Positions 15,258 to 19,072 of a DNA stretch of 64,000 bases are shown one piece after another (position 1 is the first letter of the stretch; every line of letters starts with the position of its first letter). The notes beneath the pieces were generated by a model. The model ran no database searches and was not told the DNA's origin. It saw nothing but the letters and a program-made list of their open reading frames with translations. A program made the translations under genes and the position numbers. Origin of the DNA: Polyangiaceae bacterium (GTDB taxonomy: Bacteria; Myxococcota_A; Polyangia; Polyangiales; Polyangiaceae); NCBI GenBank assembly GCA_015075635.1, contig JABTUA010000003.1, positions 2,356,001 to 2,420,000 of the forward strand, in the 5' to 3' direction.

Positions 15258-15410
15258 CCTGTCGTGGCGGGCTGCGACCGTTCTTGACGCAGGTTCAAAC
15301 GCAGCGGGAAGGTCGCAAGCCAGCAGTTCGGGCGCTAACCGTTAAGAACGCGTTGCGCGATCCGCGGGACTCGCATGGGGCGCTCCGGGCCGGCTAGAGT
15401 GCCGCCTGCA

Positions 15411-16553
15411 ATGGCTGCATCCGAACGGCGATTGGCCCGGTTTGCCGTCCTGGAGGCCGCAGATCCTGCTGGCAGCGCAGCGGCGGCCGTGAAGGCGGTT
15501 GTCCAGGCGGGATCGCTTCATTGGATCTGGAAGGAATCCAGCGCGGGGCTCCCGCAGGCAGACGTCGTCTTCCTGGTGGACGCAGGAGGAGGAGAGTGGG
15601 CCCTGCGACGAGTTCGGGAGTTGCGTCGAGCCGGCTTCACCAAGGGAATTGTCGTGTTCGCCGAGCGGCAACCCGGGGCGCCTACCCCGGCGCCTACCCC
15701 TGTCCCATCGGCGCTGGGCTGTGACGAGTGGTTCGATTTCCCGCTGCAAGGGACTTCACCGCTCCAAGTTCGGCTAGCCGCTCTGGCGTATCGTTTGCGA
15801 GCGGACGCCGACGACGACGACGACCACCTTGTCGGGCTCGACCCGGAGCTGCTCGAGCTGCGGATCGGCACAGTGACGGTCCCAGTTCGAACCCAGACGC
15901 GGTTTCGGATTCTGACGGCGCTAGTGCCATGCCGTCCGACTTGGATACGAGGGCCGGACCTGGTGCGCCTCGCGTTCTCCACTCACCACGATGCTGACTC
16001 ATCAGTGGTCCGCGTGCATGTGCATGGCATCCGGCAGATCATGAAGGCGGTGAGCTTCGAAAAACTCGGTCAAACGGGTTTGGAACACCTTCTGGAGAGC
16101 GAGACTGGCCTGGGATATCGGTTCAATCTGCGCGCGCCGGCTGCCAAAAGCGCGCTCGCGCGCGTGCGCGGCAGCGGGACGCGTCTCGCGGCGGCCAAGT
16201 CCTTGCTCCTCGTTGAAGACGATCCACTCGTGGTTCAAGCGTTCGTGCGCCGGCTCGCACGCAGGCACTTCGACGTGGTGCCGGTGCTGAACTGCAAGTG
16301 CGCGCGGGAGCAAGTCAGGCGCTTTCACCACGCGCTCATCGACAAGAGCCTCCCTGACGGAGACGGCATCGATTTGGGCGCCGAGTTGCTCCGGGCTGGG
16401 AGAGTGGAGTCCGTTACGTTCATGACGGCTCATCCAACGGCGGGCGATGTCTACCGATCATACGGAGTCGGTCCAGTAATCGACAAAGCGGATGGGTTTG
16501 AAGTGATCGCGGCGGCTTTGGCAACCGGTAATCCGGCGCGACACCCTGGGTAG
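15411..16553 (+). CDS. Response regulator with winged-helix before a C-terminal receiver
   Basis: Protein of 380 aa. Residues ~8-125 resemble a receiver fold that lacks the phosphate-accepting Asp (ADVVFLVDAGGGEWAL..., KGIVVFAERQ). About 146-240 is an OmpR-type winged helix (LRIGTVTVPVRTQTRFRIL, then SSVVRVHVHGIRQIMK and GLGYRFN). About 262-375 is a true receiver: acidic residues in VEDDP, Asp311 in LIDKSLPDG as phosphate acceptor, and Lys in VIDKAD. Usual OmpR-type proteins have the receiver first, so the order is reversed. No partner kinase is adjacent. An ATG at 15375 could start it 12 residues earlier. The stop is 4 bases before the target duplication of the IS66 element. Confidence 0.8.
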   Translation: MAASERRLARFAVLEAADPAGSAAAAVKAVVQAGSLHWIWKESSAGLPQADVVFLVDAGGGEWALRRVRELRRAGFTKGIVVFAERQPGAPTPAPTPVPSALGCDEWFDFPLQGTSPLQVRLAALAYRLRADADDDDDHLVGLDPELLELRIGTVTVPVRTQTRFRILTALVPCRPTWIRGPDLVRLAFSTHHDADSSVVRVHVHGIRQIMKAVSFEKLGQTGLEHLLESETGLGYRFNLRAPAAKSALARVRGSGTRLAAAKSLLLVEDDPLVVQAFVRRLARRHFDVVPVLNCKCAREQVRRFHHALIDKSLPDGDGIDLGAELLRAGRVESVTFMTAHPTAGDVYRSYGVGPVIDKADGFEVIAAALATGNPARHPG

Positions 16554-16557
16554 AGAT

Positions 16558-16565
16558 GCTGGGCA
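16558..16565. repeat. Target-site duplication, left copy
   Basis: GCTGGGCA directly precedes the left inverted repeat and is repeated exactly after the right one (17616-17623). Eight bases is the duplication length known for IS66-family insertions. Confidence 0.9.
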
Positions 16566-16639
16566 GTGACCCATCAGCGACACCGGGATGATTTCCGCGG
16601 ACGCGGCCGCCAGGCTCGGCTGCGAAGCGGAGGTGGTCA

Positions 16640-16999
16640 GTGGCAGGTGGACGGAAGATCGAGGACGAGGCGGAGGCGCGGCGGTGCCTGGCCGCAGCGA
16701 AGCGGAAGGGCCTGAGCGCCGGAGAGTGGGCCCGGGCGCACGACATCGACGGGCGGTCTCTGAACGCGTGGCGGGTGAATCTCGGGCGGCGGGGAGCGAG
16801 CGCTCAACCGCGACGGCGAAAGTCGAAGGCGGCAGCGACGGCGCGCGCCTTGGTCGAGCTCGTTCCGGCTTCGCCGAGCGTCGCTGTGGCTGGCAAGGGC
16901 CGCTACGTTCTCGAGGTTGCCAAGGCACGGGTGGAGTTCGGCGACGACGTTTCGGTCGAGACGCTGCACCGGGTACTCGAGGCCTTGCGCTCGTGCTGA
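16640..16999 (+). CDS. tnpA: IS66 TnpA-like accessory protein
   Basis: Protein of 119 aa, full length for the family. The front half contains a helix-turn-helix-like segment (GLSAGEWARAHDIDGRSLN AWR) and a basic stretch RRRKSKAAA; the tail is the typical VEFGDDVSVETLHRVLEAL. In IS66 elements this small protein is the first of three genes and is needed for efficient transposition. The stop overlaps the tnpB start region, as is usual in the family. Confidence 0.85.
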   Translation: MAGGRKIEDEAEARRCLAAAKRKGLSAGEWARAHDIDGRSLNAWRVNLGRRGASAQPRRRKSKAAATARALVELVPASPSVAVAGKGRYVLEVAKARVEFGDDVSVETLHRVLEALRSC

Positions 17000-17240
17000 G
17001 CCTGCCTCCGGCGGTGCGCGTGTTCGTGGCGGTGGCCCCGCTCGACATGCGCGGCTCTTTCGACGCCCTCGCCGGCGCCGTGCGCCGCCTGGGGCTCGAT
17101 CCAGTCGATGGCCACCTGTATCTCTTCCTCAACAAGCGCAGGCGGATCGCGAAGGCTCTGTGGTTCGACGGGTCGGGCTGGTGTGTTCTCGCCAAGCGCC
17201 TCGAGGCTGGGAGCTTTCAGCTTCCGCGGCTGCGCCGCCG
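16993..17240 (+). pseudogene. tnpB: IS66 TnpB, 5' part only
   Basis: From the GTG at 16993 the reading is typical IS66 TnpB (Orf2): VRVFVAVAPLDMRGSFDAL, VDGHLYLFLNKRRRIAK, then LWFDGSGWCVLAKRLEAG. Homology ends near 17235, where the sequence jumps to the transposase tail in another frame. About 30 C-terminal residues are gone. The frame stays open to 17607 by chance, giving a nonsense tail. The true product is therefore probably non-functional. Confidence 0.8.
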
Positions 17241-17563
17241 CACTCATTCGGTACTACAAGAACCATCGGGACGCGCTCTTCCGCTTCGTCGACGACCCGC
17301 TGGTCCCCATCGACAACTCTCCAACCGAGCGCGAGTTCCAGAACGTCGCCAAGCTGCGCCTCAACATGCTCTTCGCCGGCAGCACAGAAGGCGCCCACCG
17401 CGCTTGCGTGCTCCTCGGCATCATCGCCACCCGTCGCGCTCAAGGTGTCCCCGCGCAGGCCTATCTCGCCTGGGCCTTCGAGCGCCTCGGGACCCACCGC
17501 GATGTCTTCGCGCTTCCGCTCGAGGCGCTGACCCCGGCCGCGTTCAAGAAGACCCTCGCCTGA
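17240..17563 (+). pseudogene. tnpC: IS66 transposase (TnpC), 3' fragment
   Basis: About 107 residues of the IS66 DDE transposase C-terminus are present: RYYKNHRDALFRFVDDP, PIDNSPTEREFQNVAK, LLGIIATRRAQG and a normal stop at 17561-17563. The Glu in NSPTERE is the last residue of the DDE catalytic triad. The two Asp residues and all upstream domains are missing. The fragment cannot catalyse transposition. Confidence 0.88.
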
Positions 17564-17615
17564 GCCCCAGGCACGATTCCGCGAGCCGCGCACCCCGGCG
17601 TCGCTGATCGGTCAC

Positions 17616-17623
17616 GCTGGGCA
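17616..17623. repeat. Target-site duplication, right copy
   Basis: GCTGGGCA directly follows the right inverted repeat (17594-17615) and matches 16558-16565 exactly. Together they mark the boundaries of the insertion event. Confidence 0.9.
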
Positions 17624-17673
17624 ACACCTTCTTAACGCGCCGGAACGAACCTCCGATGGCAAGGTCGACCTGG

Positions 17674-17700
17674 CGTGCTGTTGGGGGCTTCCACAGCACG
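17674..17700. promoter_or_regulatory. Inverted repeat upstream of the small exported protein gene
   Basis: CGTGCTGT (17674-17681) and ACAGCACG (17693-17700) form a perfect 8-bp stem with an 11-base loop. GTCGAC occurs outside each arm. The stem lies 60 bases before the next start. It could be an operator or the remains of a terminator from the sequence split by the IS66 element. Function is not established. Confidence 0.35.
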
Positions 17701-17759
17701 GTCGACACTTGTCGAAGCGAGACCCATTCGCGCATTCCAGTGAGAGAAAGAAGGAACAA

Positions 17760-18251
17760 ATGAAGTCTAGTGTGATTCGCAAGTTCGTGTTCGCGCTTGC
17801 AGGATGCCTGTATGCCAGCTCCGCGAGCGCAGGGGTGGTGGTTCAAGCTGGAGCGGGCCATCCGCATCTGGGTTCTGGAACGTCTGGTTGGGCCAACGAA
17901 TGGAGTGGCAGCGCGTGGCTGATCACGGACGGGAGATCGATTCTTCCAAACAACGCGAGTGCCTGGTCTCCTGCCTGGGACACGCCGATTCCAATCAGTG
18001 CGACGAACGCTACCTGGACCGTAATCGCGTACGCCGGTAGCTCTGGTTCGGGCCAATGGTCCTTCAGCAACCGCATCTGCACGTTCAGCAGTTCGGGCGC
18101 GTTCTACTCCTGCGGTTCGACTGTCGGCGCTGGGAGCACGTCCCAGGCTACTGTCCCCACCGACGGGAGCGCGTACAGTCAGTCCCTATGGAGCTGCGGG
18201 GGCGAGTTCTGCGCCGGCGGGGCGACTCTCTACCACATCAAAGCGTACTGA
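17760..18251 (+). CDS. Small exported protein, orphan
   Basis: Protein of 163 aa from the ATG at 17760, which follows a GAAGGA ribosome-binding site. Residues 1-23 are a clear Sec signal (basic SSVIRK, hydrophobic FVFALAGCLYASSASA). The mature part is about 140 residues, rich in Ser, Gly, Thr, Asn and Trp with five Cys. Segments such as ATNATWTVIAYAGSSGSG, then CTFSSSGAFYSCG, suggest a compact disulfide-bonded beta protein. I do not recognise it. Its base composition looks less G/C-rich than neighbouring genes, and it lies immediately beside a mobile element, so horizontal gain is possible. Confidence 0.7.
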   Translation: MKSSVIRKFVFALAGCLYASSASAGVVVQAGAGHPHLGSGTSGWANEWSGSAWLITDGRSILPNNASAWSPAWDTPIPISATNATWTVIAYAGSSGSGQWSFSNRICTFSSSGAFYSCGSTVGAGSTSQATVPTDGSAYSQSLWSCGGEFCAGGATLYHIKAY

Positions 18252-18278
18252 GTGTTTGAAGCGCGTGGAAGCGCGTGC

Positions 18279-18312
18279 CTGTTTCGCGGGGGACCTGCCC
18301 TGCGAAACAGGT
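18279..18312. terminator. Strong hairpin after the small exported protein gene
   Basis: CCTGTTTCGC (18279-18288) pairs perfectly with GCGAAACAGG (18303-18312). Inner GGGG/CCCT pairing with one G-U extends the stem to about 14 bp, with a 6-base loop. It begins 27 bases after the stop at 18251. No T-run follows, so intrinsic termination is possible but unproven; it could also protect the 3' end of the mRNA. Confidence 0.5.
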
Positions 18313-18472
18313 GCGACGCGACATCGCGCCATGCGGACCCGTTCTCGTCTGCGGCGGCAGTCTCGGACATGGCGCGACCTCGATGGGACTAAAATTAGTT
18401 AAGCAGGCAGCAGATCGGGGCAGACGGCGCAGGGCCTTTCCCGCTGTGAATTGGTGACCGCGGAGGTGCTAA

Positions 18473-19072
18473 ATGGGAGTGTTTGGCAAAGGTGCCTGGG
18501 CTTTGGCTGGTGCGGTCGTCGGCGTCGGTGTCGCCCTGACGCTGCTGGGTCCGAGAAATGCCCCAGGCAAAGTGGCGGGGCTGACCGAACTGCGCTCCTC
18601 ACCCGAAAGACCGCCGGTAGTCGAAAGCGCTCCAGTGGCCCCCGCAGTGCCGGAAGTGGATCTGACTCCGGCTGAAGCGGTGCGAGTCTCTCCGACCCAA
18701 TCGCAGCCAGACCAAGTCGTTGAGTTGGCGACGGCGCTGGAGGCCCAGTACACGGTTGACGAGCGACCCACCCGTGAAGCCAGTCGAAGAGAAACAGTGA
18801 TCGAAGAGCTTTTCGCGCAACCGGAGCTACAAGGAAAGGCCGCTCTTGGCGAGGTTGATTGCCGCGAGAACATCTGCCGCGGAATGGTCACAATGTTCGA
18901 TGAGCAAGCGGATGGCGAAGTGTTCGGACGGACCTTCTTGTCGCCCAAGTTTGCGAGCGCCATTCAACATGCGGTAACAGTCACGTCACGGAAGAAGATG
19001 CCCGACGGGACAGTGGTTGCCACCTTCTTCGTTCACCCACAGTCCGTCGCCGACATGATCCCTCCTCCCTGA
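18473..19072 (+). CDS. Putative membrane-anchored protein, function unknown
   Basis: Protein of 199 aa. An N-terminal hydrophobic segment (about 8-26: AWALAGAVVGVGVALTLLG) gives a single membrane anchor or uncleaved signal. A Pro/Val/Glu linker follows (about 40-70). The C-terminal ~100 residues form a soluble domain with two Cys (VDCRENICRG) and an alpha/beta pattern ending VVATFFVHPQS. The C-x5-C pair in this context occurs in many myxobacterial hypothetical periplasmic proteins. Function not recognised. A GAGG-type ribosome-binding site precedes the ATG. Confidence 0.72.
   Translation: MGVFGKGAWALAGAVVGVGVALTLLGPRNAPGKVAGLTELRSSPERPPVVESAPVAPAVPEVDLTPAEAVRVSPTQSQPDQVVELATALEAQYTVDERPTREASRRETVIEELFAQPELQGKAALGEVDCRENICRGMVTMFDEQADGEVFGRTFLSPKFASAIQHAVTVTSRKKMPDGTVVATFFVHPQSVADMIPPP

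What the first reader, a model, noticed from the sequence alone, without database searches (positions are those of the whole stretch)
16558..17623. Deleted IS66 with exact 8-bp target duplication and intact ends
The 22-bp inverted repeats (20/22 match) and exact GCTGGGCA duplication show that the whole element inserted by IS66-type transposition. Inside, the tnpB end and most of tnpC are missing. Either a complete copy inserted and then lost its middle, or the deleted form itself moved as a passenger. If the same deletion exists at other sites, it is a non-autonomous IS66 family.
Basis: partly seen in the sequence, partly recalled or inferred. Interest (0 to 1): 0.65.

Follow-up and report, generated by a model that had tools for sequence, protein, structure and literature searches.

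The report
Internally deleted IS66 insertion sequence
A bacterial jumping gene (IS66 type) in a Polyangiaceae genome has kept both ends and its 8-base insertion footprint but lost most of its transposase genes; it is a single, ordinary deletion relic, and no sister copies show that the shortened form moved by itself.

Summary
Window 16566-17615 is a 1050-bp IS66-family element with 22-bp terminal inverted repeats (20/22; 22/25 when extended), flanked by exact GCTGGGCA duplications. tnpA is complete; tnpB stops at about codon 79 of 128; only the last 104 of about 547 tnpC codons remain. The same genome (Polyangiaceae, 9.47 Mb) holds six full-length relatives (2388 or 2382 bp). Five have intact tnpC, and their terminal repeats are identical to those of the window copy. 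They are not its direct parents: nearly identical to one another, they differ by about 5% from the window copy. The differences are mostly synonymous, even in the surviving tnpC tail, so the deletion probably followed most of that divergence. The junction is unique in its own genome, in 108 family genomes and in the GTDB r220 collection. Four other Polyangiaceae genomes carry different shortened IS66 elements with both ends, each single-copy where checked. The simplest reading is a full-length insertion that later lost its middle in place, with a short filler at the junction. Movement as a passenger, with transposase supplied by intact copies, is mechanically possible but unsupported. Not a non-autonomous family on present evidence; low novelty.

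The parts
16558..16565 (.). left 8-bp target-site duplication GCTGGGCA
   Evidence: sequence; 8-bp duplications also flank four of six full copies
16566..16587 (+). left terminal inverted repeat, identical to the left repeat of all six full-length copies
16640..16999 (+). tnpA, complete frame (119 aa); no Pfam model matches; assigned from position and from its match to the tnpA frame of the full copies
16993..17232 (+). tnpB, first ~79-80 codons only (PF05717, E 1.9e-21, profile positions 2-73 of 101)
17227..17248 (+). deletion junction with about 19 nt (CGGCTGCGCCGCCGCACTC) that match neither side; 16/19 to an inverted stretch of the deleted tnpC, weak support
17249..17563 (+). last 104 codons of tnpC plus stop (PF03050 positions 234-283 of 284, E 4.7e-9)
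17594..17615 (-). right terminal inverted repeat, identical to the right repeat of the full-length copies
17616..17623 (.). right 8-bp target-site duplication GCTGGGCA

Best explanation
A complete IS66-family element, of a subtype about 5% different from the copies now in the genome, inserted 12 bp downstream of a response-regulator-like gene and made the 8-bp duplication. It then lost about 1.34 kb of its middle (end of tnpB, most of tnpC) in place by illegitimate recombination that left a short filler. It can no longer supply transposase. Shown: ends, duplication, deletion, uniqueness of the junction, divergence. Inferred: the order (insertion, then deletion), the recombination route, and loss of activity.
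For: Intact repeats and exact duplication. Full-length relatives with identical terminal repeats and 8-bp duplications. Only one copy carries this junction in the genome, none among 107 other family genomes with up to 3 mismatches, and none in GTDB r220 by exact 44-mer. The surviving tnpC tail differs from the full copies by 10 synonymous and 3 amino-acid changes (P = 1.4e-4 under neutrality), with tnpA and tnpB at dN/dS 0.18, so most divergence probably predates the deletion. Polarised changes fall about equally on both lineages (14 window, 18 full copies, 23 ambiguous). Other shortened elements in the family have different structures and are each single-copy where checked, as expected for repeated independent losses.
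Against: No strain with the full-length element at this site is available. No full-length copy of the window's subtype remains in the genome, so its parent has not been seen. Five intact transposase copies with identical terminal repeats could have moved the deleted form.
Confidence: 0.7

Rival explanations
1. The deletion arose at another site and the 1050-bp deleted form then transposed here, with transposase supplied in trans by a full-length IS66 copy.
For: Both ends are identical to those of five copies with intact tnpC. The duplication is exact and the ends are unmutated while the interior differs by 5%. A 319-bp IS66 derivative with both ends and an exact 8-bp duplication exists in another Polyangiaceae genome.
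Against: No second copy with the junction anywhere searched. The 319-bp relative is also single-copy. An exact duplication is equally expected if the full element inserted.
Confidence: 0.25
2. The element was assembled by recombination between two IS66 copies, one giving the left part and one the right part, rather than by one internal deletion.
For: Two full copies in the genome (C2:943979-947366 and C2:1255198-1258585) lack matching flanks, so exchange between copies may occur.
Against: The matching 8-bp duplication on both sides argues for a single insertion, and both halves show the same ~5% divergence from the full copies.
Confidence: 0.04

Closest known systems
Full-length IS66-family element of the same genome (2388 bp, e.g. 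C1:3011105-3013492)
   Same: identical 22-bp terminal repeats, 8-bp duplications, tnpA/tnpB/tnpC order, about 95% DNA identity in shared parts
   Different: intact tnpB and tnpC; belongs to a recently multiplied, nearly identical set that excludes the window copy
IS66 family as captured in Paracoccus (ISPpa5a 2829 bp, repeats 22/20, 8-bp duplication; ISPpa7 2731 bp; PMC3281130)
   Same: multi-gene layout, repeat length, 8-bp duplication
   Different: those are full-length, active elements
Bacterial MITEs and other non-autonomous IS derivatives (described in general in PMC3281130)
   Same: terminal repeats kept, own transposase lost, possible movement in trans
   Different: MITEs are typically multi-copy; this one is single-copy, 1050 bp, and still carries gene remnants
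319-bp IS66 remnant in Polyangiaceae bacterium bin.255 (L104/L158)
   Same: both ends, exact 8-bp duplication, internal loss
   Different: different deletion, only a tnpC tail fragment kept

Membership tests
IS66 family | TnpB (PF05717) and TnpC DDE transposase (PF03050) homology | tested here: met
   window fragments match PF05717 and PF03050 over their cut-offs; the full copies match across the models
IS66 family | 8-bp target-site duplication | tested here: met
   GCTGGGCA on both sides; four of six full copies also have exact 8-bp duplications
IS66 family | terminal inverted repeats shared with full-length members | tested here: met
   22/22 identical to left and right repeats of the full copies
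IS66 family | complete tnpA-tnpB-tnpC set (autonomous element) | tested here: not met
   tnpB cut at ~79 of 128 codons, tnpC reduced to 104 of ~547; so it is a deletion derivative of the family, not an autonomous member
Non-autonomous IS66 family / MITE | several copies sharing the same deletion junction at different sites | tested here: not met
   one copy only in own genome; none in 107 other family genomes or GTDB r220 exact scan
Non-autonomous IS66 family / MITE | mobilised in trans by a full-length element | not testable with these tools
   needs a transposition assay; candidate suppliers exist

The most novel reading that the evidence does not exclude
Shortened IS66 elements with both ends arise repeatedly in Polyangiaceae and some, including this one, moved as passengers of intact copies, forming young non-autonomous lineages that have not yet multiplied.
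Probability: 0.2. Interest if true: 0.35.

Novelty: new member of a known kind. Interest (0 to 1): 0.18.

Why it matters
It is a clear example of IS decay with a partly datable order of events, and the genome also holds five intact copies with identical ends, so trans-mobilisation of a deleted IS66 could be tested directly. Otherwise internal deletion derivatives of insertion sequences are common.

Tried and rejected
Source of the junction filler: no other copy in the genome beyond chance (28 hits with up to 3 mismatches against 24 for the reversed control). An inverted match to the deleted tnpC zinc-finger region is 16/19 in the full copy and 17/19 in a congener, but about 1.5% of GC-rich 19-mers do as well, so it stays a suggestion. 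A hairpin at the junction is not unusual (z -0.77). An empty site in the two congeners could not be tested: the flanking DNA has no match there. Plasmids: only weak tnpB matches in Variovorax. Literature: no paper found in the open library on non-autonomous IS66 elements in myxobacteria.

Full report
Observation. Reading 15500-18700 confirms the finding at its stated coordinates. The element runs 16566-17615 (1050 bp). Its 22-bp terminal repeats match at 20/22 and extend to 22/25. GCTGGGCA flanks both sides. In the window there are 17,960 pairs of identical 8-mers within 3 kb; only this pair has inner inverted repeats better than 16/22. The insertion lies 12 bp after the stop codon of a response-regulator-like gene (15375-16553; PF00072 just over cut-off), so that frame is not broken.

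Anatomy. tnpA is complete (16640-16999), although no Pfam model recognises it. tnpB starts at 16993 and matches PF05717 for its first ~79 codons, then is cut. From 17249 the last 104 codons of tnpC follow, matching only the end of PF03050. Compared with full copies, the left part matches positions 1-667 and the right part the last 370 bp; a short stretch between them matches neither side. From general knowledge of DDE transposases, the first two catalytic aspartates must lie in the lost part, so the remnant cannot act as transposase; this is inference.

Relatives in the same genome. The window lies in contig C3 of a 9.47-Mb, 5-contig genome; the nearest named relatives are Polyangiaceae. Six full-length copies have the same terminal repeats: four identical 2388-bp copies, one with 2 differences, one of 2382 bp. 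A seventh copy is truncated on the left. Four of the six have exact 8-bp duplications; two do not. Five have an uninterrupted tnpC match; the 2382-bp copy is split over two frames. Three further IS66-type transposase genes of other subtypes score higher against PF03050, and one more partial match was found.

Is a full copy the donor? The window copy differs from the full copies at 36 of 667 and 19 of 370 positions. Using two congeneric species as outgroups, 14 changes fall on the window lineage, 18 on the full-copy lineage and 23 are ambiguous. The left-truncated seventh copy differs from the full copies by 1 position in the tail and from the window copy by 20. So the window element is a separate subtype and none of the present copies is its immediate parent. 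Differences are mainly synonymous in tnpA (dN/dS 0.18), tnpB (0.18) and the surviving tnpC tail (0.10; 3 amino-acid against 10 synonymous changes, P = 1.4e-4 under neutrality). Part of that constraint reflects the full-copy lineage, so this is support, not proof, that the deletion is younger than most of the divergence.

Did the deleted form move? The junction occurs once in the genome, once (this copy) in 108 family genomes allowing 3 mismatches, and an exact 44-mer is absent from the GTDB r220 collection, where the source genome itself may be left out. A survey of terminal-repeat pairs in the 108 family genomes found other short elements with both ends: 1080 bp in G035, 400 bp in G032, 319 bp in G116, and a 1759-bp element in G103 whose middle is replaced by other DNA. 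The 319-bp one has an exact 8-bp duplication; the other three do not. None of the three tested in their own genomes (G035, G032, G116) has a second full-length match. These are draft assemblies in which repeats can collapse, so low copy number there is weak evidence. The picture is of independent losses, not of a spreading family.

Order of events. An exact duplication and intact ends are expected both if a full element inserted and later lost its middle and if the deleted form inserted. The single copy favours the first. The second stays open because five intact copies with identical ends could act in trans. The site could not be compared with relatives, because the flanks have no match in the two congeneric genomes.

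Junction. About 19 nt (CGGCTGCGCCGCCGCACTC) sit between the parts. They resemble an inverted stretch of the deleted tnpC (16/19 in the full copy, 17/19 in a congener), but about 1.5% of similarly GC-rich 19-mers match as well. An inverted templated filler is possible, not shown.

Verdict. A real, single-copy, internally deleted IS66 element with intact ends. It is a new instance of a common kind of IS decay. Open-library papers describe IS66 elements of 2.7-2.8 kb with 8-bp duplications and non-autonomous derivatives of ISs in general (PMC3281130); none on this case was found.

Noticed in passing
L104:2992-3310 (also L158:301-619): 319-bp IS66 remnant with both terminal repeats and an exact 8-bp duplication (CATGATGC) in Polyangiaceae bacterium bin.255, keeping only a tnpC tail fragment; single-copy in its genome.
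   Followed up: partly
L154:501-1580: 1080-bp IS66 element (G035) with tnpA, tnpB, the start of tnpC and the right end joined; no 8-bp duplication; a related 89% copy in the same genome does not reach the junction.
   Followed up: partly
L155:501-900: 400-bp IS66 remnant (G032) with both ends and several internal losses in tnpA and tnpB; no matching 8-bp duplication.
   Followed up: partly
L083:1636-3394: 1759-bp element with IS66 ends, tnpA and a tnpC tail, whose middle is replaced by DNA that looks by eye like pieces of an IS3-type transposase; no 8-bp duplication.
   Followed up: no
L037 and L038 (C2:943979-947366, C2:1255198-1258585): Two full-length, identical IS66 copies without 8-bp duplications, possibly from recombination between copies or an assembly join.
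   Followed up: no
L034 (C1:722613-726000): Left-truncated copy of the same IS66 element, with a tail almost identical to the full copies (1 of 370) but several small indels inside.
   Followed up: no
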